Source: Saprospira grandis DSM 2844
Lineage (GTDB): Bacteria > Bacteroidota > Bacteroidia > Chitinophagales > Saprospiraceae
Reading direction: 5' to 3'
Assembly: GCF_000275825.1 (NCBI RefSeq)
Contig: NZ_JH719942.1
Coordinates: 2,665,694 to 2,706,089, forward strand
Length of the DNA stretch: 40,396 nt
Position 1 is the first letter of the stretch. Each line of letters starts with the position of its first letter. Shown here piece by piece: positions 2,011-38,618 of this stretch. A program made the translations under genes and the position numbers. The notes under the pieces were generated by a model. It saw only the letters and a program-made list of their open reading frames with translations. It ran no database searches and was not told the DNA's origin.

Positions 2011-2190
2011 GCCCCGCAGGGGCTGGCGGCCTTGCCGCCAAAGAGGAGCGAAGCGAGGACGGCTGAGGGATGGATAAGGGTGGCCGCAGGCCAGACCCAG
2101 CTTTTGAGCAGAGCGAAAAAGCGCAGGGCCGAGCAAACCTGCGAGCCCTGACAGAGCCCGACCCGCCCGCAGGGCGGGGCAGCCCCAAAA
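2011..2190 (+). repeat. Modular boundary repeat, copy A (alpha subtype)
   Basis: First of 13 copies of a GC-rich modular repeat. Left arm hairpins occupy 2011-2060. The left block GGCTGAGGGATGG starts at 2061. Hairpin 1 is TGGCC-GCA-GGCCA. Hairpin 2 is GCTTTT-GA-GC-AGA-GC-GA-AAAAGC. The central block at 2126-2146 reads GGGCCGAGCAAACCTGCGAG, one base off consensus. The right block has GCCCGACCC, a third hairpin (GCCC-GCA-GGGC), and the end GCAGCCCCAAAA. It starts 20 nt after the rRNA terminator and lies 173 nt before the glycosyltransferase. No coding role is seen. Confidence 0.88.
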
Positions 2191-2267
2191 TAACAGCAGC
2201 AGAAATAGTACATTCCTGATTTTGAAGCGATTTGGGAAAACGACTCGAAAAATTGGGATAAAATAGA

Positions 2268-2275
2268 TACTTTTG
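2268..2275 (+). promoter_or_regulatory. Possible -7 promoter element for the glycosyltransferase
   Basis: TACTTTTG matches the Bacteroidota -7 consensus TAnnTTTG and lies 88 nt before the ATG at 2364. No TTTG stands 19-21 bp upstream, so this is only half a promoter. A short GGCC-TTTAG-GGCC hairpin with a T-run (2279-2298) follows and could attenuate the leader. Confidence 0.35.
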
Positions 2276-2363
2276 TGGGCCTTTAGGGCCTTTTTTTCGT
2301 CTATAAGGTAAAACTACCCTCTTACCGCTGCAGATCAGATAAGCAGCATATAAAAACAGACTC

Positions 2364-3134
2364 ATGGAACCACAGCCAAGAATTAAGAAGCTGAGCATTA
2401 TTATACCGGCCTATAATGAAGGTCGGACGATACACCGTATTTTGAACAAAGTGAGGGCCGTAGAGCTGCCCCTAGGTATAGCCAAAGAAGTGGTTATTGT
2501 TAATGATTGTTCTAAGGATGATACGGAAGAAGCCATCAAGCGGTATCAGGCGGCTCATCCAGACCTTCCTATTCAGTATTTGGCGCATGAGATAAACAAA
2601 GGAAAAGGGGCGGCCTTGCATACGGGAATTGAGCATGCTTCAGGGGAGTACCTCATCATTCAGGATGCGGATTTAGAATATGACCCTGAGGAATACAATG
2701 ATTTGCTCAAGCCGGTGCTTTCTGGTTTTGCAGATATTGTTTATGGCTCTCGTTTTATGGGGGGAAATCCGCATCGTATCTTATTCTTTTGGCATAGCAT
2801 CGGGAATAAGTTTCTGACCTTTTTGTCGAATATGTTTTCGAACTTAAATTTGACAGATATGGAAACCTGTTATAAATTATTTCGGACCGATATTATTCAG
2901 CAAATTGATTTGAAAGAGAACCGTTTTGGTTTTGAGCCAGAGGTAACGGCAAAAGTTGCTCGTATTCCTAATATTAGGATTTATGAAGTAGGGATTTCTT
3001 ATTATGGGCGGACCTATGAAGAGGGCAAAAAAATTGGTTGGCGAGATGGATTTAGAGCCATCTATTGTATTTTGAAGTACAATATTTTTACTGCTAAGCG
3101 AAAAATGTTTAAAAATGGAGTCTTCCAAAGCTAG
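2364..3134 (+). CDS. Family 2 glycosyltransferase, polyprenol-phosphate (DPM1-like)
   Basis: The 256-residue protein is a GT-A fold, family 2 transferase of the dolichol/polyprenol-phosphate-mannose synthase type. It likely moves a sugar from a nucleotide donor to a lipid phosphate carrier at the inner face of the cytoplasmic membrane. Visible motifs are [10 protein letters not shown] (11-20), VNDCSKDDT (47-55), the NKGKGAAL loop (about 79-86) and the metal/substrate motif DADLEYDP (101-108), then METCYKLFR and a late [10 protein letters not shown]. It lacks the C-terminal membrane helices found in some relatives. The ATG at 2364 comes just before the conserved N-terminal strand. Its 3' end overlaps the start of a decayed methyltransferase, and a YfhO-like gene follows. 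That trio suggests cell-surface glycan or glycolipid work, but the sugar is unknown. Confidence 0.88.
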
Positions 3135-3777
3135 GCTTAATTTAGCAGAGGCGCTAAGGGGAGCGCAGATTAGAGTGCTTTCAATTGGCTAAGGACTTTA
3201 GCTACTGGATAAATCACTGCATAGCGCTCTATTGTCTGTCTTCCTGTTTAGAAAAAGGCAGTGATTTAGGGGCTAATATCTCTCTGCATTTTACTGGGCC
3301 CAAGAGGAGTTTTTTTTGACTAATTTGCGGCAGTTGTTTGGCTAAGGCAGCTAGTCCTAGAGGCGATAGATGTTGAGCTGCAAGACTTGGGTTTAATGGA
3401 GTAATTTGCTTCTGGTTATGCACTAAACATCTTAGAGCATATAGCCGCAGATCGGCAAGCTTTGGAAAATTGCTATAAATTGATTCGAAAAGGGGGAAAT
3501 CTAGTTATCTTAGTTCCTGCTTATAAGTTTCTTTATAATGGCTTAGATGAGGCCTTGGCTCATTATACCTCAGCTATTTGGGACTAAAGGTCCTCAAGGC
3601 GGAATATTGGAATGCTGTGGTCATAGGCTATTTTGTAGTGGTATGACCAAAGATAGAAAGAGAGGGTTGCCAGCAAGTCCCTTAAAACCTTATAATCAAC
3701 TTTTACCAATCATTAAGTTCTTAGACTGTTGTCTTTTTTGCAAATTGGTAATTCGGTGCTCATTTTGGCCCTAAAAA
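3115..3777 (+). pseudogene. Decayed class I SAM-dependent methyltransferase
   Basis: No open frame covers this stretch, but pieces of one protein can be read in order on the plus strand. A possible start ATG at 3115 overlaps the glycosyltransferase end and gives EALRGAQIRVLSIG, resembling motif I. From about 3424 one frame reads NILEHIAADRQALENCYKL then IRKGGNLVILVPAYKFLYN and GLDEALAHY, a typical motif II/III region. It stops near 3574. A second frame gives LPASPLKPYNQLLPIIKFLD at about 3670-3729, and a third gives IGNSVLILALKN ending near 3777. Multiple stops and frameshifts show it is broken. The section 3180-3330 is not recognisable. The length fits a methyltransferase of about 220 residues in an operon with its neighbours. 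Confidence 0.72.
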
Positions 3778-3807
3778 ATTAAACTTAGTTTAGATACAGC
3801 TATTGCT

Positions 3808-6558
3808 ATGAAAATTACGAACGCACTTTCGCATTTTGCCATTGTCGCTATTTTGCTCTTTGCGGCTATACTTTACTTTAAACCAGTTGCCTTAGATAAT
3901 AAGTCGCTGCCCGAGAGTGATAATAGCCAAGCCCGCGGTATGCAGGCAGAAATCCAAAAATATAAAAAGGCAGAGGGTGATGCTCCCCTTTGGACCGATC
4001 AGGTCTTTGTTGGGATGCCTTCTTACCAAATTTATGGAGAGTACAATAATAACGTTATCCAAAAGTTATTTCTCTATGTTGTCCGTTTAGGGACCCCTGT
4101 CAATACTCCACACATCATTTTGTTTATGATGATGTTGCTGGCTTATTTATCGTTGATTATGTTTGGGGTAAATAAATGGATGGCCGCAGTAGGAGGGCTT
4201 GCCTTTGGTCTGATGACCAATAATTTGGTCCTTTTTGAGGCAGGACACTCAACAAAGTTGCATGCTATGACCTATATGGCGCCTATTTTGGCCGCCGCCA
4301 CAATGGCTCTTCGAGGGAAGCGGATGCTGCTGGGGGCTAGCCTAATGGGCTTTTTCTTGGCTGGACAGATTTCGGCGAACCACCTTCAAATAACCTATTA
4401 TACCTTTATGATGCTGGCCTTTATTGGCGGAGCATTTTTGGTCAATGCCTTACTAAAGCGCGAGCAGCTAATGACCGTCGTTAAGGGGGGGAGCTTGCTG
4501 ATTATTGCAGCGGCCTTGGCCGTAGGAGCCAACTTATCGGCGCTTTGGACTACCTATGAGTATTCTAAAGAAACTATTCGGGGGAAGTCGGAGCTAACCG
4601 CCTACACCTTAAATGAAAGCGATGCTCGGACCTTGGCCCAAGAAGGAATGCCAGCCGAAAAAATTGCGCAGTTGCAGCAGGCCAGAATTCTTAATGAGCC
4701 GATTAAAACGGAGACAATTTTCATCAATCGATTAAAAAATGTAATTGGTCCTGATTATGTAAATGCAAATAAAGAGCGCATCTTGGCCCTAGCTTCTAGC
4801 CAACAACAAGATGGCTTGAACAAAGAATATATCTTTGGTTGGAGCTATGGGAAAATGGAAACCTTTACGCTTTTGGTGCCTCACTTCTATGGAGGCGCTA
4901 ATGGAATGTACTTTGCCGACGACCAATCAAAGAGTGGGATTCAGCTCAGTAAAGAATCGGCTACCGGAAAGGTGATCCAGAAAATGATGCGCAATGTACA
5001 AGACCCCAATCAAAGTCAGCAAATTGCCAATCAATTGCTGCAAATGAGTACGCAGTACTGGGGCGCTCAACCTTTTACTAGTGGCCCAGTATATTTTGGT
5101 GCCGTGATTTGCCTGCTCCTGATTTTAGGCCTCTTTTTGGCAGAGGGCCCCTTGCGTTGGGGCCTAGGTTTGGCCTTGCTTTTCCTTACTGTTTTGGCTT
5201 GGGGCGATAACTTTAAGGCCTTTAACTATTTTATGGTGGATAATTTCCCCATGTATAATAAGTTTCGGGCAGTGAGTATGGCCCTTTCGGCTGCGCAGGT
5301 TTTGGCCGCACTCTTAGCTATTTTGGGCTTGCAAGGGTTCTTTAATTTAGAAGATACGGCCAAGCGAGAGAAGCTGCTTTATCTAGCCACTGGAATTACG
5401 GCAGGCCTAGCTGCTTTTGCCCTAGTTTATAGTTTTGTAGGCGACCTTTCGGCTCCCAATGATGCTCGCTTAGAGGCTATGGTAGCTCAGGCTCCTCAGT
5501 GGGCCGAATACCTAGAAGCCCTAAAAGAAGATCGGGCTAGCCTGATGCGCTCGGATGCACTTCGCTCTTTGGTCTTTGTTCTTTTGGCTGCCGGAAGCCT
5601 TTGGGCCTTTAACAGAGGTTACTTTAAGGAGAAACTGATTGCAGTGGCTATCTTGGGCCTTTTGAGTTTGGTCGATTTGGTGGGCGTAGACCTAAATTAT
5701 GTCAATAAGGAAAGCTTCCAACGTAAAAAAGATGTGGCTAGCGCTCCGCCTATGACAAAAGCCGATCAACAGGTGCTCTCTGATAAAGATCCCCACTTCC
5801 GCGTTTTTGACCTGATTGCTGGCGCCCGCCGTGGCGGCTCTCCCTCAAATTCTTTTGCCAACTCAGAAGGGGCCTATTTTCATAAGGTGATCGGAGGCTA
5901 TCATGCGGCCAAACCCATCTTGTTGCAAGAAATGGTAGAGGGCTATTTTACCAATAATGAAATTTTGACCGATAAGCGGCATTTGATCGAAATGCTGAAC
6001 GTGAAGTATGTAATGCAAAGCCCCGAAAATGCGGTCCAAATTGGTAACTTAGGAAATGCTTGGTTGGTAGATCAGGTCAAGCAGCTAGAAGATGCCGATG
6101 CCGTTTATACCGCCTTGGCCACTTTTAATCCAAGAGTAGAGGCGATCACAACAAAAGCTAATGCAGCTTATCTGGATGGCTTAGCGAATACAGCAAGCTC
6201 TGGGGATTATATCCGCCTGAAAAGCTACCATCCCGAAAAACTCGTCTATGAGTCGCAAACCCAAAATGAGCGCTTTGCCGTCTTTTCTGAAATCTATTAT
6301 CCCGCTAGCAAGGGCTGGCATCTTTACATTGATGGACAAAGAGCAGATCAAGATTTTATTAAGGTGAATTATCTGTTGCGTGGAGCCAGAATTCCCGCAG
6401 GCCAACATAAAATCGAAATGGTTTTTGAACCTAATTCTTATTATACTGGCGAAACCCTGGCCCTAATTAGCTCTTTGCTGATTCTTCTGGCCCTTTTGGG
6501 CACTGGCTTTCTAGCCTATCGCCAAGCTCAACTTAAAGCAGAAGAAAGTCTAATCTAA
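3808..6558 (+). CDS. YfhO-family multi-pass membrane protein
   Basis: The 916-residue protein has a first membrane helix at about residues 8-27, then a long extracytoplasmic loop with LWTDQVFVGMPSYQIYGEY, then many hydrophobic helices to about residue 650. A soluble section follows (about 660-880) with GGYHAAKPILLQ, LIEMLNVKYVM and YYPASKGWHLYIDG, and a last helix near 880-905. This order is that of the YfhO family, which is related to GT-C transferases and linked to glycosylation of surface polymers. It lies downstream of a GT2 gene and a methyltransferase remnant, so it probably acts on the lipid-linked sugar made by the GT2 enzyme; this is inference. The final residues are a charged tail. 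Confidence 0.85.
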   Translation: MKITNALSHFAIVAILLFAAILYFKPVALDNKSLPESDNSQARGMQAEIQKYKKAEGDAPLWTDQVFVGMPSYQIYGEYNNNVIQKLFLYVVRLGTPVNTPHIILFMMMLLAYLSLIMFGVNKWMAAVGGLAFGLMTNNLVLFEAGHSTKLHAMTYMAPILAAATMALRGKRMLLGASLMGFFLAGQISANHLQITYYTFMMLAFIGGAFLVNALLKREQLMTVVKGGSLLIIAAALAVGANLSALWTTYEYSKETIRGKSELTAYTLNESDARTLAQEGMPAEKIAQLQQARILNEPIKTETIFINRLKNVIGPDYVNANKERILALASSQQQDGLNKEYIFGWSYGKMETFTLLVPHFYGGANGMYFADDQSKSGIQLSKESATGKVIQKMMRNVQDPNQSQQIANQLLQMSTQYWGAQPFTSGPVYFGAVICLLLILGLFLAEGPLRWGLGLALLFLTVLAWGDNFKAFNYFMVDNFPMYNKFRAVSMALSAAQVLAALLAILGLQGFFNLEDTAKREKLLYLATGITAGLAAFALVYSFVGDLSAPNDARLEAMVAQAPQWAEYLEALKEDRASLMRSDALRSLVFVLLAAGSLWAFNRGYFKEKLIAVAILGLLSLVDLVGVDLNYVNKESFQRKKDVASAPPMTKADQQVLSDKDPHFRVFDLIAGARRGGSPSNSFANSEGAYFHKVIGGYHAAKPILLQEMVEGYFTNNEILTDKRHLIEMLNVKYVMQSPENAVQIGNLGNAWLVDQVKQLEDADAVYTALATFNPRVEAITTKANAAYLDGLANTASSGDYIRLKSYHPEKLVYESQTQNERFAVFSEIYYPASKGWHLYIDGQRADQDFIKVNYLLRGARIPAGQHKIEMVFEPNSYYTGETLALISSLLILLALLGTGFLAYRQAQLKAEESLI

Positions 6559-6589
6559 AGACTTTTTAAGCCATAAGAGGATACAAATT

Positions 6590-6626
6590 TAGGCCTCTAC
6601 GCTTCAGCGTAGAGGCCTATTATTTT
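6590..6626 (+). terminator. Intrinsic terminator after the YfhO gene
   Basis: TAGGCCTCTACGC pairs perfectly with GCGTAGAGGCCTA across a TTCA loop and is followed by TTATTTT. It starts 31 nt after the stop codon. Confidence 0.9.
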
Positions 6627-6658
6627 GCGGTCTAGCAGGGCCGAAGGGCCGCAGGCAA

Positions 6659-6821
6659 CAGCCAGATTTAAACGCACTCACTTTTATAGTTTGCAGCAAT
6701 TTCCCGCTAGTCGGCCCTATTTTCCTCGGCCATAGCAAAGGCTATGCCCTTAAAAAAATAGCTGGCTTAGCAGAAAATTCATAGCAAACCATGGCCAAAG
6801 CAGCGCGATTAAATCTGGCTG
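6659..6821 (+). repeat. 163-bp inverted-repeat unit, MITE-like, splitting copy B of the boundary repeat
   Basis: CAGCCAGATTTAAACGC at 6659-6675 faces the near-perfect inverted partner GCGCGATTAAATCTGGCTG at 6803-6821. The interior has an extra hairpin (GGCCATAGC/GGCTATGCC, about 6729-6750). Left of it, at 6627-6654, is GCGGTCTAGCAGGGC followed by a hairpin and GCAGG; this matches the outer arm that directly precedes the GGCTGAGGG block in copy I. The unit therefore appears to have separated the outer arm from the body of copy B. No transposase is encoded. The right end overlaps the GGCTG of the repeat, so exact junctions are unsure. Confidence 0.5.
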
Positions 6822-6950
6822 AGGGATGGATAGCAGTGGCCGAAGGCCAGACCAAGCTTTTTGAGCAAAGCGAAAAAAGCGATGGGCCGAGCAGACCTGC
6901 GAGCTGCGACACAGCCCGACCCAGCCGCAGGCTGGGGCAGCCCCAAAAAA
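6817..6950 (+). repeat. Modular boundary repeat, copy B (alpha subtype)
   Basis: The left block GGCTGAGGGATGG starts at 6817. Hairpin 1 is TGGCC-GAA-GGCCA. Hairpin 2 is GCTTTTT-GA-GC-AAA-GC-GA-AAAAAGC. The central block GGGCCGAGCAGACCTGCGAG is at 6884-6903. The right block reads ACAGCCCGACCC, followed by hairpin AGCC-GCA-GGCT and the end GGCAGCCCC plus six A. It lies between convergent genes; its A-run end is 7 nt from the caspase stop codon, so for that minus-strand gene it appears as a T-run. Confidence 0.88.
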
Positions 6951-6957
6951 CTAAATC

Positions 6958-8214: not shown

Positions 8215-8267
8215 AGTAGCTGCAATTTGTAAAATAATCATAATGGGGGGCTTCCCGCAGCCCTTTA

Positions 8268-8410
8268 ATTTGGGGCTGCGGGCGCTATGCTGCGGGGCTC
8301 GCTATTCGCTCGGCCCTTCGGCGCTAGCGCGCCTCGGTCTGCCCCTCTGGGGCACCCACTCCGCAGCGCTAAGCCATTTGGCCCTGCGGGCCAGGCGGCT
8401 TCGCCGCCCA
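8268..8410 (-). repeat. Modular boundary repeat, copy C (gamma subtype, variant core)
   Basis: Read on the minus strand. The left block GGCTTAGCGCTGCGG begins at 8375, with outer arm hairpins out to 8410. Hairpin 1 is TGCCCC-AGA-GGGGCA. The linker is GACCGAG. Hairpin 2 is GCGC-GCTA-GCGC. The central block GGGCCGAGCGAATAGCGAGC (8297-8316) is the rarer core. The right end reads CCCGCAGCATAGCG then CCCGCAGCCCCAAATT at about 8266-8280. Between divergent genes, it places its AAA end 54 nt before the caspase start. Confidence 0.82.
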
Positions 8411-10800: not shown

Positions 10801-11010
10801 CCCACCCACCCCTCTGCGGGATTCCCTAGGGAATCCCTTGGGGGAGGCTGGGCCATTTTTGCAGCAGACAGGCGGCGAAGCCGCCGCAGGCCTAGCGATG
10901 TGCAGGGGGGCGGCGCAGCCGCAGACCGAGGCAGCTTGCTGCCGAAGGGCCGAGCAGACCTGCGAGCCCCGAAACGTAGCGCCGCAGCTTTGCTGCGGAG
11001 GCCCCAAAAA
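10801..11010 (+). repeat. Modular boundary repeat, copy D (beta subtype)
   Basis: Outer arms (10801-10888) include GATTCCC-TAG-GGAATC and GGCGGC-GAA-GCCGCC hairpins. The left block GGCCTAGCGATGTG starts at 10889. Hairpin 1 is GGCGGC-GCA-GCCGC. The linker is AGACCGAG. Hairpin 2 is GCAGC-TT-GCTGC. The central block is at 10947-10967. The right block is CCCGAAACGTAGCGC, then hairpin CGCAGC-TTT-GCTGCG, and the end GAGGCCCC plus five A. It fills most of the 376-bp gap between the ATPase and pheT genes. The rest of the gap holds the pheT promoter. Confidence 0.88.
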
Positions 11011-15994: not shown

Positions 15995-16133
15995 TTTTTT
16001 GGGCCCGCGGCCAACTAGGCTTTGCCTAGCTGGCCGCCGCTATGCTGCGCCGCTCGCAAGTCTGCTCGGCCCTGCAGCCGCCGCAGGCGGCCTAGGTCTG
16101 GCCCTGCGGGCCACGGCTGCGCAGCGCTGGGCC
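15995..16133 (-). repeat. Modular boundary repeat, copy E (gamma subtype)
   Basis: Read on the minus strand. The left block GGCCCAGCGCTGCG starts at 16133. Hairpin 1 is TGGCCC-GCA-GGGCCA. The linker is GACCTAG. Hairpin 2 is GCCGCC-TGC-GGCGGC. The central block at 16052-16072 has one change (GACTTG). The right part is GCAGCATAGCGGCGGCC, then a CTAGGC-AAA-GCCTAG hairpin and the end GGCCGCGGGCCC plus six A. Its A-run end lies against the rny terminator. An isolated GGCCCAAAAAAC at about 16180-16191 may be a fragment of a further copy. Confidence 0.85.
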
Positions 16134-16327: not shown

Positions 16328-16496
16328 TGCAGGCGGCTTTGCCGCCTGCAAAGGGCCGAAGGCCCAAGGCTGAGGGGCTGTAGCAGGGCCGCCAAAGGCG
16401 GCAGACCAAAGCGGCTTTTGCCGCTGCAGGGCCGAGCAGACCTGCGAGCTGCGAAATGGCCCGACCCGCCCAAAGGGCGGGGCAGCCCCAAAAAAA
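16328..16496 (+). repeat. Modular boundary repeat, copy F (alpha subtype)
   Basis: Outer arm hairpin GCAGGCGGC-TTT-GCCGCCTGC is at 16328-16350. The left block GGCTGAGGGGCTGTAGC starts at 16368. Hairpin 1 is GCCGCC-AAA-GGCGGC. Hairpin 2 is GCGGC-TTTT-GCCGC. The central block is at 16429-16449. The right block is GGCCCGACCC, hairpin GCCC-AAA-GGGC, then GGCAGCCCC plus seven A. It is inverted relative to copy E and lies 123 nt before the large secreted-protein gene. The stretch 16134-16327 between the two copies shows nothing else recognisable. Confidence 0.87.
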
Positions 16497-20138: not shown

Positions 20139-20179
20139 TAAGCAATTAGTCATTTCTATGGCTAGTTGCTTATTTTTTT
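20139..20179 (+). terminator. Intrinsic terminator of the secreted modular protein gene
   Basis: A 14-bp stem with G-T pairs (20139-20152 with 20159-20172) and a loop of six is followed by seven T. The T-run is shared with the A-run end of repeat copy G. Confidence 0.88.
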
Positions 20180-20324
20180 GGGGCCCGCGGCCAGCTAGGC
20201 TCCGCCTAGCTTGGCCGCCGCTATGCTGCGGGGCTCGCAGGTCTGCTCGGCCCTTCGCTTTTTTTCGCTTTGCTCAAAAAAAGCTCGGTCTGGCCTTCGG
20301 CCACCCGCTCCGCAGCGCTGGGCC
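20173..20324 (-). repeat. Modular boundary repeat, copy G (gamma subtype)
   Basis: Read on the minus strand. The left block GGCCCAGCGCTGCGG starts at 20324. Hairpin 1 is TGGCC-GAA-GGCCA. Hairpin 2 is CTTTTTT-GA-GC-AAA-GC-GA-AAAAAAAG. The central block is at 20233-20253. The right block is GCAGCATAGCGGCGGCC, then hairpin CTAGGC-GGA-GCCTAG and GGCCGCGGGCCCC with seven A. It directly abuts the preceding terminator. Confidence 0.87.
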
Positions 20325-21489: not shown

Positions 21490-21714
21490 AAGTTTTGTGT
21501 TTAAATGGGGTTAATAAATAAATTACGTTATAAAACTAGGGATATACTTTTAAGTTGTCAAGCCTTTTGTAAAAAAAAATATAACTTTTTAACATTTGCT
21601 GTTTACGCAGCCCTATTTTTTGTAGTTGATCAACCAAATTTAGTACTGTACTATAGTAGAACAGTAGTTTTGAGGCAAGAGCTGAATGACAGCAGGGAAA
21701 AAGCTGATGTTTAG

Positions 21715-22060
21715 CGCTAATTTGCATTTGCAAAAAGGCTCTAAACGATGCCCGGAGCTAATTTGCATTTGCAAAACAGCTCTAAACGATGCCCGGAGCT
21801 AATTTGCATTTGCAAAACAGCTCTAAACGATGCCCGGAGCTAATTTGCATTTGCAAAACAGCTCTGAACGATGCCCGGAGCTAATTTGCATTTGCAAAAC
21901 AGCTCTGAACGATGCCCGGAGCTAATTTGCATTTGCAAAACAGCTTTAAACGATGCCCGGAGCTAATTTGCATTTGCAAAACAGCTCTAAACGATGCCCG
22001 GAGCTAATTTGCATTTGCAAAACAGCTCTGAACGATGCCCGGAGCTAATCTGCAGTTTAC
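21715..22060 (+). repeat. Tandem array of 41-bp hairpin-forming units (8 full copies plus a partial)
   Basis: Units end at 21755, 21796, 21837, 21878, 21919, 21960, 22001 and 22042, an exact 41-bp period, and a decayed ninth begins at 22043. Each unit contains GAGCT-AA-TTTGC-ATTT-GCAAA-AC-AGCTC, which folds into a two-step hairpin, then TAAACGATGCCCG. Copies differ almost only at one base (CTCTAAAC or CTCTGAAC, once CTTTAAAC); the first copy differs more. The array sits in the 1220-bp gap between divergently transcribed genes, 225 nt from the minus-strand start and about 650 nt from the lipoprotein start. There are no variable spacers, so it is not a CRISPR array. Confidence 0.95.
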
Positions 22061-22209
22061 AAATCCCTCTGGGCATATCTATAATGTCCTATCTTTTTTT
22101 TCTGGACCGACCCTACTACAGTTTAGGGATAGGCGCTTAGCAGCGAAATATGGAAGGCGGCTGTATTTTGGGGCTAAACATCCTGCAGTCTAAAGGCCTG
22201 TTGGGCCGA

Positions 22210-22418
22210 GCTGTAGGTTGAAACCTACAGCCAATTAACGAATGCAATTTAATATAGTATGGAAGGTTAAAACCCTCCATAAACAAACATCTTCTAGGCT
22301 GCCCAAATCATAAATGCAGCAGTTATGAGGGCCGTTAAAAGCGGTAGAGGATTTTAATCCTCTCCGCACTATAGATGTAGTATATAATTGTTGTATGGCT
22401 GTAGGTTTCAACCTACAG
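22210..22418 (+). repeat. Cluster of four short palindromes of the GGTT-xx-AACC type
   Basis: The palindromes are 22210-22231 (CTGTAGGTT-GA-AACCTACAG), 22259-22280 (ATGGA.GGTT-AA-AACC.TCCAT), 22341-22367 (AGAGGATT-TT-AATCCTCT with a flanking GCGG/CCGC stem) and 22399-22418 (CTGTAGGTT-TC-AACCTACAG). The last is the exact reverse complement of the first, so 22210-22418 is also a large inverted repeat. Arms differ between copies but stay complementary. Two more members occur near 38655 and 38684. No T-run follows, so they do not look like terminators. Confidence 0.75.
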
Positions 22419-22447
22419 TTATCGCCGAAGCGCCAGGACCTCCATTC

Positions 22448-22574
22448 GGCCTAGCGATGTGAAAGGGGGCGGCGAAGCCGCAGACCAAGGCCGTCAGGCC
22501 GCAGGGCCGAGCAGACCTGCGAGCCCTGAAACGTAGCGCCGCAAGGCGAAGCCGCAGCGGAGGCCCCAAAAAAA
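22448..22574 (+). repeat. Modular boundary repeat, copy H (beta subtype)
   Basis: The left block GGCCTAGCGATGTG starts at 22448. Hairpin 1 is GGCGGC-GAA-GCCGC. The linker is AGACCAAG. A short GCC-GTCA-GGC hairpin 2 follows. The central block is at 22504-22524. The right block is CCTGAAACGTAGCGC, then a GC-rich arm and AGGCCCC plus seven A. It lies 135 nt before the lipoprotein gene, oriented with it. Confidence 0.87.
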
Positions 22575-27234: not shown

Positions 27235-27384
27235 TTTGGGGCTGCCCCTCGCCTTTGGCTCGGGTCGGGCTGTGTCAGGGCTCGCTGTTCGCTCGGCCCT
27301 GCGCGGGCTTTGCCCGCTTGGTCTGGCCTTCGGCCCCCCTTATCCATCCCTCAGCCTGCGGGCGCTTCGCGCCCTGCTAGACCG
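27235..27384 (-). repeat. Modular boundary repeat, copy I (alpha subtype, variant core)
   Basis: Read on the minus strand. The outer arm (GGTCTAGC then GGGCGC-GAA-GCGCCC) starts at 27384. The left block GGCTGAGGGATGG starts at 27356. Hairpin 1 is GGCC-GAA-GGCC. Hairpin 2 is GCGGGC-AAA-GCCCGC. The central block GGGCCGAGCGAACAGCGAGC is at 27280-27299. The right block is ACAGCCCGACCC, hairpin GCC-AAA-GGC, then GGGGCAGCCCCAAA. It lies between divergent genes with its A end 55 nt from the alaS start. Confidence 0.86.
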
Positions 27385-28524: not shown

Positions 28525-28746
28525 AGGCCCTTTAGGGCCGCAGGCCACAACAAGCCCTTTAGGGCGCAGTTCGACGACCGAAGGAAGTAACCGATGTGTA
28601 GCAGAAGGCGCGCAGCGCCTGGCCTAGCGATGCGACAGGGTGGCGCAGAGCGCCAGACCGAGCCAGCTTGCTGGCGAAGGGCCGAGCAGACCTGCGAGCC
28701 CTAAAGCGTAGCGCCGACGACCGAAGGGAGGCGGAGGCCCCAAAAA
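28525..28746 (+). repeat. Modular boundary repeat, copy J (beta subtype)
   Basis: Outer arms (28525-28620) include GCCC-TTTA-GGGC hairpins and GGCGC-GCA-GCGCC. The left block GGCCTAGCGATGCG starts at 28621. Hairpin 1 is TGGCGC-AGA-GCGCCA. The linker is GACCGAG. Hairpin 2 is CCAGC-TT-GCTGG. The central block is at 28679-28699. The right block is CCTAAAGCGTAGCGC, then an arm and GGAGGCCCC plus five A. It ends 23 nt before the MerR start; reading through it would give that protein a false N-terminal extension. Confidence 0.87.
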
Positions 28747-28769
28747 TCTATCATAAAAAAACGATTAGG

Positions 28770-30931: not shown

Positions 30932-30944
30932 TCGCTTGATTGTT

Positions 30945-33569: not shown

Positions 33570-33626
33570 ATTATTTTCTGCACTACTTTTTCAATGCGTT
33601 TTGATTTTGCCGTTTTGGCTGCTCTT

Positions 33627-33634
33627 CAAAGATA
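33627..33634 (-). promoter_or_regulatory. -7 promoter element of the M1 peptidase gene
   Basis: On the minus strand TATCTTTG matches TAnnTTTG exactly, 58 nt before the start codon. No TTTG is at the right upstream distance. It lies between repeat copy K and the gene. Confidence 0.5.
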
Positions 33635-33663
33635 CAAATTTCTGCAAGAAGTAGATAGGGGCT

Positions 33664-33804
33664 TTGGGGCCCGCGGCCGCCCCTAAAAGGGCGGGCGGCC
33701 GCCGCTATGCTTTGGGGCTCGCAGGTCTGCTCGGCCCTGCGTTTTTTTCGCTGCGCTCAAAAAACTTGGTCTGGCCTACGGCCACCCCGCCGCAGCGCTG
33801 GGCC
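33664..33804 (-). repeat. Modular boundary repeat, copy K (gamma subtype)
   Basis: Read on the minus strand. The left block GGCCCAGCGCTGCGG starts at 33804, directly after a terminator T-run. Hairpin 1 is TGGCC-GTA-GGCCA. Hairpin 2 is TTTTTT-GA-GC-GCA-GC-GA-AAAAAA. The central block is at 33717-33737. The right block is GCATAGCGGCGGCCGCCCGCCC, a TTTTA loop, its partner arm, then GGCCGCGGGCCCCAAA. It fills most of the 294-bp gap before the M1 gene. Confidence 0.87.
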
Positions 33805-33834
33805 AAAAAAAGGGGCTGCAATGCTTGCAGCCCC
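33804..33834 (-). terminator. Intrinsic terminator of the first Cys-rich paralog
   Basis: GGGGCTGCAA pairs with TTGCAGCCCC over a 3-nt loop, and seven T follow on the minus strand. The stem is the same as that of the terminator at 34423-34454. Confidence 0.92.
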
Positions 33835-33863
33835 CGAGTTCAAAGCGAAAAATGTTGATCCGC

Positions 33864-34397: not shown

Positions 34398-34422
34398 AAT
34401 TGTCTTGGCTTAAGGTATAAAA

Positions 34423-34454
34423 CAAAAAAGGGGCTGCAAGAATTGCAGCCCCTT
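34423..34454 (-). terminator. Intrinsic terminator of the second Cys-rich paralog
   Basis: GGGGCTGCAA (34430-34439) pairs with TTGCAGCCCC (34443-34452), and six T follow on the minus strand. The duplicated stem sequence suggests the tandem duplication included the terminator. Confidence 0.92.
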
Positions 34455-34480
34455 AATAGGTTTAGGCATAAAGTATATGC

Positions 34481-35011
34481 TTACTCTTTACCTTTATTCT
34501 GAAGCGCTTCCATTTCTTTACCGAAGTCCATGAACTTCTGGAATACCTTCTGTTCTTTGGGGCAGTTTTTACCCAAGAAAGCGTTGATGATTTCCATCTG
34601 CTTCTTTTCTTTTACTTTACCGTCAGCGTCTTCGCCGATGATTTTCTTCATTTCTTCGTCTAGAAGCTCTTCGTTAACATTGTCGCCTACTTTCTGGAAA
34701 CATTCGCCGAAGGCTTTCATTTTGGCCATAGAGCCCATAAGCTTACCCATTACTTCCATGGGGTTAGCATCTTCTTTGGTTTGAGCTTCTTTGAGCAAAG
34801 GAAGAGCTTCATCTACAAAAGCAGTGAGCTCATCACCGTGATTGCTAAGGCATTCGCAAGCACCGGTAGACATTTTGTCCATTTCGGCTTTGGCTTCATC
34901 GCTCATTTTTGCGATGTCGGGATTGCTAGCTGTGGGATCTCCACCTCCACAAGACATGAGGAAAAAGCTAGTCATAAGAGCGATAAGAAGGCTACTGCTA
35001 AATAAACGCAT
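34481..35011 (-). CDS. Cys-rich small lipoprotein, paralog 2
   Basis: The 176-residue protein has a lipoprotein signal (MRLFSSSLLIALMTSFFLMSC, lipidated Cys21, then GGG). The rest parallels paralog 1: PDIAKMSDEAKAEMDKMSTG matches TDIAKLSPGAQAELDSMALD, then ACECL, FGECF, KNCPKE and FQKFMDFGKEMEALQNKGKE. It is Lys/Glu-rich and helical. The pair differs in anchoring: this copy should be lipid-attached, the other soluble. Function is unknown. The 5' region (35012-35100) is AT-rich without a clear promoter match. Confidence 0.84.
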   Translation of the reverse strand: MRLFSSSLLIALMTSFFLMSCGGGDPTASNPDIAKMSDEAKAEMDKMSTGACECLSNHGDELTAFVDEALPLLKEAQTKEDANPMEVMGKLMGSMAKMKAFGECFQKVGDNVNEELLDEEMKKIIGEDADGKVKEKKQMEIINAFLGKNCPKEQKVFQKFMDFGKEMEALQNKGKE

Positions 35012-35314
35012 AATTGTAAGAATTAAAATGATAAGATATAATAGGGATTGAGTACAATTAGAACAATGGTTTTGCGCTTGAGCAATCAGCCCAGAAACTC
35101 CAAAAACATGGGTGGATAACTGTCTCAGTTTTTAACAAAACCAAATATAAGGCTTTCGGATTATAGCTGCCAGTTTTTTTAAGAAAAGCTTAAATATTAT
35201 TTTCTAGTCAGCTTTAAATTGAGTAGTTTGTTTTAATTTATTTTGGAATAAAACTCCTTTAAAATCAAAGTTATAGGGAGGGCTATATCTTTAAAAAATG
35301 CTTGGGGCAGATTT
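35012..35314. other. AT-rich intergenic stretch, no gene seen
   Basis: This stretch between the Cys-rich lipoprotein and repeat copy L holds no convincing ORF, RNA or hairpin. It must contain the promoter of the minus-strand lipoprotein gene, but only a loose TATATCTTAT is visible near its start. A lone TGGATAA (35113-35119) resembles part of a DnaA box. Confidence 0.6.
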
Positions 35315-35436
35315 GGCCTAGCGATGTGCAGCAGTGGCCCGCAGGGCCAGACCGAGCCGCTGAAAGCGGCGAAGGGCCGAGCGAATAGCGAGCTGTGGAA
35401 CGTAGCGCCTGCCGCAGGCAGGAGGCCCCAAAAAAA
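35315..35436 (+). repeat. Modular boundary repeat, copy L (beta subtype, variant core)
   Basis: The left block GGCCTAGCGATGTG starts at 35315. Hairpin 1 is TGGCCC-GCA-GGGCCA. The linker is GACCGAG. Hairpin 2 is CCGCT-GAA-AGCGG. The central block GGGCCGAGCGAATAGCGAGC is at 35374-35393. The right block is TGGAACGTAGCGC, then hairpin CCTGCC-GCA-GGCAGG and AGGCCCC plus seven A. It ends 38 nt upstream of the cytidine deaminase promoter. Confidence 0.88.
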
Positions 35437-35473
35437 CAGCAGATAAACATCAGCATATAGGGGGCAAAATAGT

Positions 35474-35504
35474 TTTGTATAGCCTAGTGAAAAGTCTATC
35501 TTTA
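35474..35504 (+). promoter_or_regulatory. Promoter of the cdd operon
   Basis: TTTG at 35474-35477, 19 bp, then TATCTTTA at 35497-35504 (one base off TAnnTTTG). Transcription would begin near 35511, giving a 70-nt leader to the ATG at 35581. Confidence 0.62.
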
Positions 35505-35580
35505 CAAGCTTTTCTATTGTGAACAACCTTGAGCGCTTAGTGGGACAAGCTTTGGGTTCAAGTAAAAGGAAAATTAGACG

Positions 35581-36066
35581 ATGGGCAAAAAGATTGAGAT
35601 TCGGGCCGACTATGAACTATTTTCTAAGGCGGAGGAGCTGCCAGCGATTGAGGCGGAGCTTTTGGCTAGGGCGCATGCGGCCTGTGACACGGCCTATGCG
35701 CCATATAGTGAGTTTAGAGTGGGGGCTGCGGCGCTTTTGGAGAATGGGGAGATTGTATTGGGGAGTAATCAGGAAAATGCGGCATATCCGTCTACCATTT
35801 GTGCAGAAAGAGCCGCTGTTTTTGCGGCGGCGGCACAATTTCCGGGGGTAGTTATTCGGGCGGTGGCGATTCGGGTAAAAACGGCTGGGGAGCGGGTAGA
35901 GCGTCCTATATCTCCTTGTGGGGCTTGTCGGCAGGTATTATTTGAGTTTGAGTGGCGGCAAGAAGCGCCCATACAATTATTATTGCAGGGGGACAAAGGC
36001 GATATTTATCGGATAGCTTCGACCAAATCGCTTTTACCACTTTTGTTTGACCCAAGTTTTTTATAG
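35581..36066 (+). CDS. cdd: Cytidine deaminase
   Basis: The 161-residue protein is a homotetrameric-type cytidine deaminase, converting cytidine and deoxycytidine to uridine forms in pyrimidine salvage. The zinc site is complete: Cys74-Ala-Glu76 in TICAERAAVF (Glu76 catalytic) and Cys113/Cys116 in SPCGACRQVL. The substrate-binding YAPYSEFRVGAA is at 39-50 and the NQENAAYPS loop at 63-71. Length is normal for the short class apart from an N-terminal extension of about 20. The first ATG is used, 70 nt after the predicted transcription start. It heads a five-gene operon with gaps of 3-11 nt. Confidence 0.95.
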   Translation: MGKKIEIRADYELFSKAEELPAIEAELLARAHAACDTAYAPYSEFRVGAAALLENGEIVLGSNQENAAYPSTICAERAAVFAAAAQFPGVVIRAVAIRVKTAGERVERPISPCGACRQVLFEFEWRQEAPIQLLLQGDKGDIYRIASTKSLLPLLFDPSFL

Positions 36067-36069
36067 AAG

Positions 36070-36975
36070 ATGTTAAGTAGAAATTTCCGTATTCGGGAGG
36101 GCTTATTGGCCCTAGATTATTCTTTGGCAGATGAGCAATGTTTGCGTTATTTGCAATTTTTGCAGCAGTATGTGCGCATAGATCGTTTAGAATTGATGCA
36201 TGTGGTAAAAAAGTCGGGCTTTTTTGAGCAACTTTTTGCGGCTGATGCGGAGCGGATGCGGAAACTTTTTCCTTCTGCGGAAGAGCAGCGGCAGCGTATG
36301 CAGGCTTTGGCGGAGGTTCATTTGGGGCAGACGAATATTCAGTTGGCCTATGAGGTAGAGAATGGGCAGCCATTGGAGGAATTGTTGGAAGAATTGGAGG
36401 AGCAGCGGACAGATTTGTTGGTTTTGGGCAAAAAGCCTTTGGCCCAGGGGGCTGGGGTTTTGAGTCGAAACTTGGCTCGTCGCTCGCCTTCCTCTTTGCT
36501 TTTTGTGCCTCCTTTGGCCGAGCAATTGAAGTTGGGCCGTTTTATGGTGCCTGTAGATTTTTCTGAAAACTCGGCTTTGGCTTTGCAGGCGGCTTGTGCT
36601 TTGGCTCGACGTCTGCCGCAGCCGCCGCAAATAGACTGTGTGCATGTGTATCGCATGCCCGATCCGCATATATATAATATCAATCAAACGCAGGCGGAGT
36701 TTGAGGAGCTGCTTTTATCGAGTACCAAGGAGGCTTATGAGAATTTCTTGGACAGCTATCTGCCTAAAGACATGCCTCGGATGGAGCTGCAATTGATTCA
36801 GCGAGGACGCTTGAGTACGGCGGGGCATTTATATGATTGGGCGGAGGATCATCTACCCGACCTCATCTTTTTGGGGGCCAAGGGGCATACTGCGCTCAAG
36901 ACGCTTTGGTTGGGCAGTGTTAGCGAAAAAATTATTCAACTCAATGAAGCTTTCCCCTGTTTCATTATTAGATAA
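36070..36975 (+). CDS. Tandem-domain universal stress protein
   Basis: The 301-residue protein has two UspA-type domains. The first (about 1-150) is divergent, with LLALDYSLADEQCLRYLQFL and DLLVLGKKPLAQGAGVLSRN. The second (about 155-301) is closer to consensus, with FMVPVDFSENSALALQAACA and the ATP-binding loop LGAKGHTALKTLWLGSVSEK near 272-291, ending PCFIIR. The protein is cytoplasmic. USPs help survival under stress, and the G-x2-G-x9-G-(S/T)-like pattern suggests nucleotide binding by the second domain. It starts 3 nt after cdd. Confidence 0.88.
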   Translation: MLSRNFRIREGLLALDYSLADEQCLRYLQFLQQYVRIDRLELMHVVKKSGFFEQLFAADAERMRKLFPSAEEQRQRMQALAEVHLGQTNIQLAYEVENGQPLEELLEELEEQRTDLLVLGKKPLAQGAGVLSRNLARRSPSSLLFVPPLAEQLKLGRFMVPVDFSENSALALQAACALARRLPQPPQIDCVHVYRMPDPHIYNINQTQAEFEELLLSSTKEAYENFLDSYLPKDMPRMELQLIQRGRLSTAGHLYDWAEDHLPDLIFLGAKGHTALKTLWLGSVSEKIIQLNEAFPCFIIR

Positions 36976-36986
36976 GTTATTGGATT

Positions 36987-37433
36987 ATGGGCAAACAGAT
37001 AGATGCCGAGCAGTTGCGGGGGCTTTTGCTCCCTTTGGGTTTTATTGAAGAGCAGGGCACGAAAGAGGAGGCCCTTGTATTTTGGCGCCGATTGGAGAAC
37101 CGAGATTTGCGTTCTCCCTTTGCGTTTAGTCATGTTCGGGCTTCTTTGGACCAATATGTCTTTCGCTTAGAGGCTTGGAATCAGGGGCGTTTGAAGAAGG
37201 CGGCCAAGGCGGATTTGATCGTTTTGGAAAGCCCTGAAGATTTGGAGCCTTATAAAGAAATTATTTTGGAGAAAAGCCGTGCCGCTGCCGAGCAATTGCC
37301 TGCTTTTATTGGCTTTTTTGCCCAGCAAATGCAGGCTTTAGAAGAAGAGAAATTGAGTAGCCCAATTTATAAGGCGGCACTCAAAAATTTGGAACTGATG
37401 GCTCAAGCGGCCAATCAGGTAGATTTAGAATAA
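36987..37433 (+). CDS. Unrecognised protein, 148 residues, in the cdd operon
   Basis: I do not recognise a family. The protein is soluble and helical: MGKQIDAEQLRGLLLPLGFI, then an aromatic/basic section with FWRRLENRDLRSPFAFSHVR and YVFRLEAWNQGRLKKAAKAD, then long helices (PYKEIILEKSRAAAEQLPAF, ALKNLELMAQAANQVDLE). There is no signal peptide. It starts 11 nt after the USP gene and ends 7 nt before the Sua5/YciO gene, so it is co-transcribed. Codon use matches its neighbours. Confidence 0.8.
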   Translation: MGKQIDAEQLRGLLLPLGFIEEQGTKEEALVFWRRLENRDLRSPFAFSHVRASLDQYVFRLEAWNQGRLKKAAKADLIVLESPEDLEPYKEIILEKSRAAAEQLPAFIGFFAQQMQALEEEKLSSPIYKAALKNLELMAQAANQVDLE

Positions 37434-37440
37434 GGAAGTT

Positions 37441-38064
37441 ATGTTATTAGAAATTCATCCCGAGAACCCTCAAGCTCGAAAGATTGAGCAGGTTTTGAAG
37501 GTCCTAAAAAATGGGGGCGTGATTATTTACCCCACCGATACTGTTTATGGTTTGGGCTGTGATATTACCCAGCCTCGGGCCATCGAACGCATTTGCCGCA
37601 TCAAGGGGATTCAGCCCAAAAAGGCCAATTTATCATTTATTTGCGCCGATCTTAGCAATATTTCTAATTATTGCCGCCCTTATTCTACCAGCATTTACAA
37701 ATTGATGAAGTCGGCCCTGCCTGGTCCTTTTACCTTTATTTTGGAGGGGAACAGCAGCTTGCCCAAATTGCTCAAAAACCGCAAGAAAACCTTGGGGGTT
37801 CGGGTGCCCAATAGTCCCATTGTACGTGATTTAGTCTTGGGCCTTGGCCAGCCTTTGCTCTCTTCTTCCATCAAAAACTTAGATGAGGAAGATGAGATTA
37901 GAGAATACCCTACGGATCCCTACGAAATCCATGAACAATATGAGCATCTGGTCGATTTGGTGATTGATGGTGGCATTGGTGGCCATCAGCCTTCTACGGT
38001 AGTGGATTGTACGCAAAACCCGCCCGATTTGATCCGCCAGGGTTTGGGCAAATTGAACTTCTAA
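37441..38064 (+). CDS. Sua5/YciO/TsaC-family protein (threonylcarbamoyl-AMP synthase type)
   Basis: The 207-residue protein has the YrdC-like fold: GGVIIYPTDTVYGLGCD (25-41), RICRIKGIQPKKANLSFIC (about 51-69), SALPGPFTFILEG (about 91-103), and TLGVRVPNSPIVRDLV. It then has LLSSSIKNLDEEDEIREYP and IDGGIGGHQPSTVVDCTQ. The family makes the threonylcarbamoyl-AMP used for t6A37 in tRNA. The SSSIKNLDEEDE stretch in place of STSAN is closer to the YciO branch, whose exact role is less certain than TsaC. No Sua5 C-terminal domain is present. It lies in the cdd operon, 7 nt after the previous gene and 3 nt before the DUF423 gene. Confidence 0.87.
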   Translation: MLLEIHPENPQARKIEQVLKVLKNGGVIIYPTDTVYGLGCDITQPRAIERICRIKGIQPKKANLSFICADLSNISNYCRPYSTSIYKLMKSALPGPFTFILEGNSSLPKLLKNRKKTLGVRVPNSPIVRDLVLGLGQPLLSSSIKNLDEEDEIREYPTDPYEIHEQYEHLVDLVIDGGIGGHQPSTVVDCTQNPPDLIRQGLGKLNF

Positions 38065-38067
38065 GTC

Positions 38068-38463
38068 ATGAAAAAGGAAAAATGGATTTTGGGCCTTGGG
38101 GCCATTTTTGGCGCTTTGGCCGTTATTTTAGGTGCTTTTGGGGCGCATGCACTCAAGGCGCAAATTACGCCCGATCGTCTAGAGATTTATCAGTTGGGGG
38201 TGAGCTATCAGTACTATCATGCCTTGGCCCTTTTGGCGACTGGCCTTTGGGCGCGTTTGGCTGGAGCTCCAGCATTAAAATGGGCGGGCATCAGCTTTGC
38301 CATGGGCATTTTGCTTTTTTCGGGCTCGCTTTATCTCTTGGCTTTGCGCGATGTAATGGGCATTTCGGGCGGGGTATTGGCCGTTATTGGCCCATTAACT
38401 CCTGTTGGCGGCCTCTTTTTTATTGGCGGCTGGTCGGTACTGGCCATTAAAGCGTTTAAGTAG
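38068..38463 (+). CDS. DUF423-family small membrane protein
   Basis: The 131-residue protein has four hydrophobic helices (about 8-28, 46-65, 72-92, 98-124). The first contains the family's GALAVILGAFGAHALK. Later it has YQYYHALALLATG and GPLTPVGGLFFIGGW, both typical of DUF423 (YgdD/TMEM256-like). Function is unknown; it is an inner-membrane protein. It is the last gene of the cdd operon. No separate hairpin terminator is seen; the T-run of repeat copy M begins at the stop codon. Confidence 0.9.
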   Translation: MKKEKWILGLGAIFGALAVILGAFGAHALKAQITPDRLEIYQLGVSYQYYHALALLATGLWARLAGAPALKWAGISFAMGILLFSGSLYLLALRDVMGISGGVLAVIGPLTPVGGLFFIGGWSVLAIKAFK

Positions 38464-38618
38464 TTTTTTTTGGGGCTGCCCCAGCCTTTGGCTGGGTCGG
38501 GCCATTGCGCAGCTCGCAGGTCTGCTCGGCCCTGCGCGGGCTGCGCCCGCTGGGTCTGCCGCCTGCGGCGGCCCTGCTACAGCCCCTCAGCCTGCGGCGG
38601 CTTTGCCGCCTGCAAAAC
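38464..38618 (-). repeat. Modular boundary repeat, copy M (alpha subtype)
   Basis: Read on the minus strand. Outer arm GCAGGCGGC-AAA-GCCGCC is at about 38599-38614. The left block GGCTGAGGGGCTGTAGC starts at 38592. Hairpin 1 is GCCGCC-GCA-GGCGGC. Hairpin 2 is GCGGGC-GCA-GCCCGC. The central block is at 38512-38532. The right block is GGCCCGACCC, hairpin AGCC-AAA-GGCT, then GGGGCAGCCCC and eight A. It starts immediately after the DUF423 stop codon and could supply its transcript with T8 plus a following GC hairpin. Confidence 0.88.

What the first reader, a model, noticed from the sequence alone, without database searches (positions are those of the whole stretch)
2011..38618. Thirteen-copy modular repeat family marking operon boundaries
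Seen: copies at 2011-2190, 6817-6950, 8268-8410, 10801-11010, 15995-16133, 16328-16496, 20173-20324, 22448-22574, 27235-27384, 28525-28746, 33664-33804, 35315-35436 and 38464-38618. Conserved blocks (left block, GACC(A/G)AG linker, GGGCCGAGCAGACCTGCGAG core, right block ending in GGCCCC or GCAGCCCC and usually an A-run) alternate with three hairpins. Hairpin stems differ in sequence from copy to copy (TGGCC/GGCCA, GGCGGC/GCCGC, GCCGCC/GGCGGC, TGGCGC/GCGCCA) but remain self-complementary, which is covariation. Inference: the folded form (RNA or single-stranded DNA) is under selection. It could be a REP/BIME-like mobile element, a structured RNA, or a nucleoid/insulator site. Density is about one per 3 kb, so several hundred may exist genome-wide.
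Basis: seen in the sequence. Interest (0 to 1): 0.9.

Follow-up and report, generated by a model that had tools for sequence, protein, structure and literature searches.

The report
Thousand-copy folded repeat in Saprospira
A marine predatory bacterium carries about a thousand scattered copies of a short DNA element whose sequence keeps changing while one intricate folded shape is preserved; neighbouring copies mostly point in alternating directions along the chromosome, and what the element does is not yet known.

Summary
The core 21-mer (up to 3 mismatches) occurs 953 times in the 4.5-Mb genome, 0 in the reversed control. Covariation is strong: over seven genera 22 of 28 pairs change on both sides, 158 double-change cells against 45 shuffled. 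G·T outnumbers A·C 189 to 4, so one strand folds. No Rfam family matches; 23 of 298 Saprospirales genomes have hits. In Saprospira copies hardly move: 38 of 39 anchored sites (of 123) keep place and orientation at 47% fourfold divergence. New here: 201 of 238 neighbours alternate, mostly because same-orientation copies are rare within 3 kb. RAYT and RVT_1 mobilisation are not supported. "Operon boundary" fails on an annotated plasmid. Best reading: a new structured interspersed repeat family, mobile in origin, now fixed and maintained. Function and machinery unproven.

The parts
2061..2187 (+). element copy 1 (P1 GGCTG/CAGCC), downstream of the 5S rRNA gene
   Evidence: 97.4 bits; reader start 2011 includes flanking hairpins; 5S
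6817..6945 (+). element copy 2 (P1 GGCTG/CAGCC); preceded by a ~160-nt stretch (6657-6816) absent from G001 and G005, present in G002
   Evidence: 110.2 bits
8246..8375 (-). element copy 3 (P1 GGCTT/AAGCC)
10889..11006 (+). element copy 4 (P1 GGCCT/AGGCC)
   Evidence: 111.4 bits
15999..16133 (-). element copy 5 (P1 GGCCC/GGGCC); its A-run lies beside the T-tract of a terminator-like hairpin
   Evidence: 91.4 bits; sequence
16368..16490 (+). element copy 6; with copy 5 forms a -+ pair (5' ends facing)
   Evidence: 90.8 bits
20179..20324 (-). element copy 7 (P1 GGCCC/GGGCC); A-run overlaps a terminator-like T-tract
   Evidence: 95.0 bits; sequence
22448..22568 (+). element copy 8; the 248 nt just 5' of it (22200-22447) are absent in G005, present in G001
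   Evidence: 103.0 bits
27237..27356 (-). element copy 9
   Evidence: 90.6 bits
28621..28742 (+). element copy 10; a 74-nt stretch just 5' of it (28547-28620) is absent in G005 and G002 and partly absent in G001
   Evidence: 109.2 bits
33665..33804 (-). element copy 11
   Evidence: 103.0 bits
35315..35430 (+). element copy 12
   Evidence: 101.7 bits
38471..38592 (-). element copy 13
   Evidence: 83.1 bits

Best explanation
The 13 copies belong to a new family of interspersed structured elements of the order Saprospirales. The unit is about 95-150 nt: a closing helix P1, helices P2 and P3 below it, hairpin P4, a linker pairing with the core, hairpin P5, a conserved core hairpin, hairpin P6, then P1' followed by CCC and, in Saprospira, G018, G089 and others (not all), A's. 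SHOWN: one specific strand folds and its pairing is under selection; copies exist in many genera; in Saprospira they stay in place and orientation over long times while modules inside change in a coordinated way. INFERRED: the element arose as a non-autonomous mobile unit that spreads through its folded + strand (RNA or single-stranded DNA), lands with its 3' end next to genes, has ceased to move in Saprospira, and is kept there by selection plus gene conversion among copies. Same-orientation copies closer than about 3 kb are rare, most simply because recombination between close direct repeats deletes the genes between them; that leaves a mostly alternating order. The machinery that copies it is unknown.
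For: Fold: RNAalifold on an unfitted MAFFT alignment of the 13 copies gives 28 pairs, 14 with double changes; A2 (150 copies) 748 double-change cells vs 243; A3 (29 copies, seven genera) 22 of 28 pairs, 158 vs 45 cells, 94.9% paired vs 31-49% when slid. One strand: G.T vs A.C 189:4, 46:1, 123:6. Mobile origin: in G089 three of six 99-nt copies are identical, a fourth differs at 1 base, two at 4 and 7; patchy spread, 23 of 298 genomes, 19 of 140 genera, one to ~1,000 copies. Fixed in Saprospira: same place and orientation in 40 of 40 anchored sites (G005), 38 of 39 (G002), 61 of 66 (G005 vs G002); a second method gave 42 of 42 and 36 of 37. Maintained: P3 changed on both sides and still paired in 13 of 38 orthologous pairs with G002. 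Ordering: 201 of 238 neighbours alternate; same-strand pairs number 1, 2, 8 and 29 per kb bin from 0 to 4 kb, then 26-50; 28 of 35 alternate in another genus.
Against: No clean empty site, target duplication or linked transposase was found: the two sites absent in G002 look like decayed copies. No recent insertion was seen in Saprospira. The four closest G089 copies also share patches of flank, so the mobile unit may be longer. Element identity to G002 (79%) is only modestly above its own flanks (71-72%, which may hold genes; shuffled baseline 49%), and 3' spacers are as stable in length as elements (2 vs 2 of 37), so retention is shown better than sequence constraint. Pruning of direct repeats is not shown; deletions were not tested. 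A slot null and a rotation null reach mean alternation 0.73-0.75, so much of the alternation follows from same-strand exclusion and gene-facing position. Counts on A2-A4 lean towards the fold because those alignments were fitted to it, and on A2 one of five measures (pair types) did not exceed shuffles (177 of 500).
Confidence: 0.55

Rival explanations
1. Host-function punctuation: the folded + strand works for the cell at the ends of gene blocks, for example as an RNA structure formed by transcription entering a block from outside (insulation, processing or mRNA protection), or as a site for a nucleoid protein. Position, orientation and fold are kept because the cell needs them.
For: Near-complete retention at 47% fourfold divergence; 5' spacers change length by >=40 nt more often than elements (12 vs 2 of 37 pairs with G002); 3' end nearer a gene than the 5' end (median 108 vs 314 nt from the core; in G018 nearer in 32 of 47); all 39 two-element gaps are -+; alternation also in G018 and on plasmids, 21 of 21 and 19 of 20 neighbours (counted).
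Against: No link to gene strand: the gene faced by the 3' end is on the same strand in 123 of 240. Copies of both orientations lie inside the co-directional pur run of a plasmid, awkward for a transcription block. No hit in most Saprospirales genomes (capped search) nor in two genomes of the same genus, G003 and G004. No shared promoter motif. Flanks nearly as conserved. Odds lowered from 0.25 on re-checking.
Confidence: 0.22
2. Bacterial SINE-like retroelement: element RNA with its A-rich 3' end primes on T-tracts (such as terminator U-tracts) and is reverse-transcribed into the site.
For: CCC followed by A's at the 3' end in Saprospira, G018 and G089; 56 of 112 copies facing a gene end are followed by a terminator-like hairpin of the converging gene vs 19 of 117 facing a start (11 of 240 not parsed); + strand fold with G.U.
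Against: No A-run after CCC in several other genomes (L116, L119, L122, L129). RVT_1 has no match in 6 of 12 element-bearing genomes searched, among them G018 and G089. No target duplications seen by eye. Half the copies face gene starts. Odds lowered from 0.10 on re-checking.
Confidence: 0.07
3. REP/BIME or REPIN elements moved by a RAYT (Y1 transposase).
For: High-copy, intergenic, hairpin-rich; close pairs are inverted, as REP doublets are (PMC3116915, passages read).
Against: Y1_Tnp presence does not follow the element: 0 in G018, 1 in the own genome, present in many genomes without it. Unit about 95-150 nt with long-range helices. Positions static.
Confidence: 0.04
4. A transcription terminator or attenuator in mRNA leaders or 3' ends.
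For: GC-rich helices next to A/T runs beside genes.
Against: The run after the fold is A, not U, in the folded strand; sense and antisense placement are equal.
Confidence: 0.04
5. GC-rich low-complexity drift, no feature.
For: Matches are GC-rich (0.54-0.79).
Against: 0 reversed-control matches against 953; slid and shuffled controls.
Confidence: 0.01

Closest known systems
BOX elements of Streptococcus pneumoniae (PMC3049150: abstract and section 6 read)
   Same: Short, modular, intergenic, strongly structured, multi-copy (86 BOX in the two contexts of its Table 1), slow-moving; module number varies between strains; judged parasitic by the authors.
   Different: About half of BOX, RUP and SPRITE insertions are present in all sequenced strains of one species; here 38 of 39 anchored sites persist between genomes with 47% fourfold divergence. 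One multi-helix fold with cross-genus covariation, roughly ten times more copies, chromosome-wide alternation, reach over an order.
REP / BIME / REPIN with RAYT (PMC3116915 passages read; PMC2817692 abstract start in search listing only)
   Same: Hundreds of intergenic palindromic copies; inverted doublets; alternating orientation inside a BIME.
   Different: REPs are short palindromes (size recalled); alternation in BIMEs is within one cluster, here it runs over kilobases with genes between; no Y1 link.
Candidate structured RNA classes (Rfam 15)
   Same: Multi-helix fold supported by covariation and G.U pairs on one strand.
   Different: No Rfam match; not tied to a gene strand; copy number far above typical cis-regulatory RNAs (that last comparison is from general knowledge).

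Membership tests
REP/BIME/REPIN-RAYT | Y1 (RAYT) transposase in genomes that carry the repeat | tested here: not met
   PF01797 0 matches in G018 (150 of 150 scored candidates are elements); present in 47 of 60 genomes irrespective of the element. G089 was not searched for it
REP/BIME/REPIN-RAYT | unit is a short (about 20-40 nt, recalled) palindrome | tested here: not met
   95-150 nt unit with eight helices in the consensus
REP/BIME/REPIN-RAYT | close copies arranged as inverted pairs | tested here: met
   39 of 39 two-element gaps are -+; 31 of 31 neighbours with gap <700 nt
BOX-like interspersed repeat | modular, intergenic, structured, multi-copy, no own gene | tested here: met
   but 58 of 240 cores lie in ORFs >=100 aa if such ORFs are not masked
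BOX-like interspersed repeat | sequence homology to boxA/B/C | not tested
   no BOX sequence was compared
Known Rfam family | match to a covariance model | tested here: not met
   (only rRNA at gathering score; one miRNA match in 42, one miRNA and one chrB-b match in 88, all far below their cut-offs)
SINE-like retroelement | resident reverse transcriptase | tested here: not met
   RVT_1 no match in 6 of 12 element-bearing genomes; other RT families not searched
SINE-like retroelement | A-rich 3' end | tested here: inconclusive
   present in Saprospira, G018, G089; absent in L116, L119, L122, L129
SINE-like retroelement | RNA intermediate | not testable with these tools
   needs experiment
Invertible or site-specific recombination sites | inversion of segments between inverted sites | tested here: not met
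   G005 vs G002: 213 kb plus-strand alignment, one 492-nt minus block. G000 vs G005: 144 kb plus, eight minus blocks of 6.7 kb in all; the two best (1.1 and 1.6 kb, 97% and 93%) are not bounded by an element at both ends. G000 vs G002: 135 kb plus, one 551-nt minus block
Structured RNA | transcription as a discrete or defined RNA | not testable with these tools
   no RNA-seq; no TAnnTTTG enrichment upstream of P1

The most novel reading that the evidence does not exclude
A chromosome-wide system of folded, strand-specific elements that punctuates a bacterial genome: each tends to point its 3' end at a gene block, neighbours alternate with at least about 3 kb between like-oriented copies, and position, orientation and fold are conserved across species and the ordering across genera, so the elements act together as an architectural or RNA-level boundary system unlike any described bacterial repeat.
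Probability: 0.2. Interest if true: 0.93.

Novelty: new variant of a known kind. Interest (0 to 1): 0.78.

Why it matters
A cultured, sequenced bacterium devotes roughly 4% of its genome (about 1,300 copies of ~130 nt, extrapolated) to one structured element that Rfam and the papers searched here do not name. It offers about a thousand natural variants of one fold in one genome, so structure, conversion between copies and retention can be measured directly. The roughly 3-kb exclusion between like-oriented copies is a clean, testable trace of either direct-repeat deletion or an unknown function of alternating order, and relatives with no hit, tens and about a thousand copies allow comparison.

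Tried and rejected
RAYT/Y1 mobiliser: distribution does not follow the element. Reverse transcriptase RVT_1: no match in half of the element-bearing genomes searched. Rfam, permissive search: chance hits only. Cis-regulatory UTR element: no gene-strand preference. Own promoter: no conserved motif or TAnnTTTG peak upstream of P1 (224 copies with P1 located). Invertible cassettes: no block inverted between two elements. Terminal inverted repeats in G089: four of eight copies seemed to share longer flanks, the others did not, so dropped. More variable DNA inside -+ intervals: not consistent. Subtype tied to strand or gene end: not seen. Missed copies as the cause of same-orientation neighbours: a relaxed search found one extra copy, of the same orientation, in 37 intervals; 8 of the 37 contain masked stretches, against 5 of 181 alternating ones. 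Neighbouring genes of low-copy elements: eight of ten proteins had ordinary Pfam families, none shared, two had none.

Orthology used only sites with unique anchors (40 of 123, 39 of 123 and 66 of 77; the rest had no anchor, many because the fetched stretches do not overlap). Fourfold divergence is from 12 window genes. Some A-runs were placed inside P6 by my pattern. Candidate caps and stricter filters make counts for other genomes lower bounds and absences provisional. 'Not in print' rests on eight searches of open-access papers, seen as listings except PMC10508125 (whole text), PMC3049150 (abstract, section 6), PMC3116915 (passages) and PMC2267715 (abstract, outline). The two S. grandis genome papers were not held.
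Full report
OBSERVATION. Aligned without reference to structure, they share a left block, a GACC-N-AG linker, the core and a right block ending in CCC plus A's. RNAalifold on that alignment gives 28 pairs in one multi-branched fold, 14 of them with double changes. The fold has a closing helix P1 (5 bp) between the left and right block, P2 and P3 below it, hairpin P4, a CC/GG pair between linker and core, hairpin P5, the core hairpin and hairpin P6. P3 is the cleanest separate test: the 4-mer before P4 and the 4-mer after the core are fully paired in 203 of 232 parsed copies, against a mean of 72.5 and a maximum of 85 in 200 shuffles.

COPY NUMBER AND HOST. The window lies in a 4.5-Mb genome (G000:C2); the core 21-mer with up to 3 mismatches occurs 489 + 464 times, 0 in the reversed control. 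In 800 kb I found 240 cores with both core variants and 242 model hits in the own genome's stretches, plus one each in L042 and L043: about 1,300 genome-wide if uniform. Three same-genus genomes hold 913, 486 and 844 cores at the same mismatch limit. The chromosome length of G001 equals S. grandis Lewin (NC_016940.1) and the contig lengths of G005 equal S. grandis WH (4,250,550 and 53,161 bp; PMC10508125), so the window is from Saprospira or very near it. Two other genomes filed in the same genus, G003 and G004, have no hit.

A WIDER FAMILY. The model finds the same architecture in other Saprospirales: 23 of 298 genomes, 19 of 140 genera (12 candidates scored per genome). Copy number varies greatly: G018 150 of 150 scored candidates, G014 80 of 150, G035 19 of 150; others one to a dozen (lower bounds). 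In 414 kb of G018, 58 copies were found. No Rfam family matches.

SELECTION ON THE FOLD. On 150 Saprospira copies 96.7% of cells pair (77.2% shuffled), with 748 double-change cells against 243; one of five measures, pair types, is not above shuffles (177 of 500 reach it). On 29 copies from seven genera 94.9% pair, 22 of 28 pairs have double changes, 158 cells against 45, no shuffle of 500 reaching any of the five measures; slid controls pair 31-49%. These alignments were fitted to the model, which favours the fold; two searches were not. Wobble-type cells are G.T, not A.C (189:4, 46:1, 123:6), so the + strand is the one that folds, as RNA or single-stranded DNA, not a symmetric cruciform.

STABILITY. 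Sites with unique flanks keep the element in the same orientation in 40 of 40 (G000 to G005; 83 of 123 had no anchor), 38 of 39 (G000 to G002, one opposite; 84 without anchor) and 61 of 66 (G005 to G002; three opposite, two absent; 11 without anchor); the reverse runs gave 38 of 38 and 39 of 39. A second method gave 42 of 42 and 36 of 37. The two absent sites carry what look like decayed remains, not clean empty sites. Fourfold-site difference is 0.153 to G005 and 0.467 to G002. Orthologous copies are 86% and 79% identical, other copies 67%, yet in 12 of 40 and 18 of 38 another copy in the fetched stretch is closer than the ortholog, which suggests conversion between copies. The flanks are nearly as similar (G002: 71% on the 5' side, 72% on the 3' side, possibly including genes; shuffled baseline 49%), so the sequence itself is not strikingly constrained; presence, orientation and pairing are. 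At the same locus P3 has changed on both sides and still pairs in 5 of 40 (G005) and 13 of 38 (G002), against 4 and 8 changed and not fully paired. Spacer length 5' of the element differs by >=40 nt in 6 of 38, 12 of 37 and 16 of 59 pairs; element length in 4, 2 and 3; 3' spacer in 1, 2 and 5. At the loci aligned, stretches just 5' of P1 come and go while the element stays. By contrast about half of pneumococcal BOX, RUP and SPRITE insertions are present in all strains of one species (PMC3049150, section 6).

PLACEMENT AND ORDER. Elements are found in 199 of 287 gaps >=150 nt between called genes (element-overlapping ORFs left out, see limits). The 3' end is close to a gene (median 108 nt from the core; 5' end 314), and that gene is on the same strand in 123 of 240, so gene direction does not matter. 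In G018 the 3' end is the nearer one in 32 of 47. When the A-run faces a gene end, the next 45 nt often fold as that gene's terminator (56 of 112 at MFE <= -8, against 19 of 117 facing a start). All 39 two-element gaps are -+, with 3' ends outward. Along the chromosome 201 of 238 neighbours alternate; among intervals with genes 162 of 199. Same-strand pairs number 1, 2, 8 and 29 per kb bin from 0 to 4 kb and 26-50 per kb from 4 to 12 kb. A rotation null that keeps each strand's spacing gives 0.747 +/- 0.024 (maximum of 2,000: 0.849) against 0.845 observed, and a slot null with gaps >=300 nt gives 0.733, maximum 0.794: most of the alternation follows from like-strand exclusion, with a modest extra -+ excess. 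G018 shows 28 of 35 (p = 5e-4). On two S. grandis plasmids 21 of 21 and 19 of 20 neighbours alternate (counted; the plasmids are related to each other). Against the annotated plasmid genes, copies lie between paaA and paaB and in four gaps of the co-directional pur run, in both orientations, so 'operon boundary' is not a rule.

MECHANISM. Mobility is implied by the patchy distribution and by near-identical dispersed copies in G089, three identical, one at 1 base and two at 4 and 7 of 99; the four closest share patches of flank, so the moving unit may be longer. The usual machines do not track the element: Y1 transposase has no match in G018 (G089 was not searched for it) and RVT_1 none in 6 of 12 element-bearing genomes. 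The A-run is not universal: several other genera lack it after CCC. I commit to a new structured interspersed family of mobile origin with unknown machinery, now fixed and maintained in Saprospira, its order shaped by loss of close direct repeats. The last step and the source of the maintaining selection are inference; strains compared here show no block inverted between two elements and deletions were not tested. A host function at the edges of gene blocks is the leading rival.

VERDICT. Real, strongly structured, spread over an order and, as far as eight literature searches and Rfam show, undescribed. As a kind it stands nearest to BOX and REP/BIME repeats, but it fails the RAYT and size tests of REPs and matches no Rfam family.

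Noticed in passing
window 21634-22125: A 41-nt tandem array (nine overlapping matches of a 164-nt reference at 41-nt steps); its 3' part and flank (about 21720-22200) match many places in related genomes.
   Followed up: no
window 6617-6816: A ~200-nt 5' extension joined to the element; the composite matches dozens of places in G001, G002 and G005, and most of it is missing at this locus in G001 and G005.
   Followed up: partly
window 28547-28620 and elsewhere: A second small repeat (CAGTTCGACGACC..GGGAGTAA type, up to 3 mismatches) nested in or beside elements: 47 matches in 800 kb, 41 within 400 nt of a core.
   Followed up: partly
window 22210-22232 and elsewhere: Small hairpins of GGTTTCAACC/GGTTGAAACC type, 87 matches in 800 kb, 70 within 400 nt of a core.
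   Followed up: no
window 22203: An isolated GGGCCGAGC with no element around it; not a copy.
   Followed up: yes
L099 near 5351 (G005) against L109 15348-16357 (G002): In G005 one element lies inside what looks like the signal-peptide region of a gene, and by eye the reading frame stays open through it; G002 has only a short remnant-like stretch there.
   Followed up: partly
L171 and L172 (S. grandis plasmids): The ~53-55-kb plasmids carry 22 and 21 elements in 50 kb each, about 1.4 times the density in the 800 kb of chromosome examined (other method), among purine and phenylacetate genes.
   Followed up: partly
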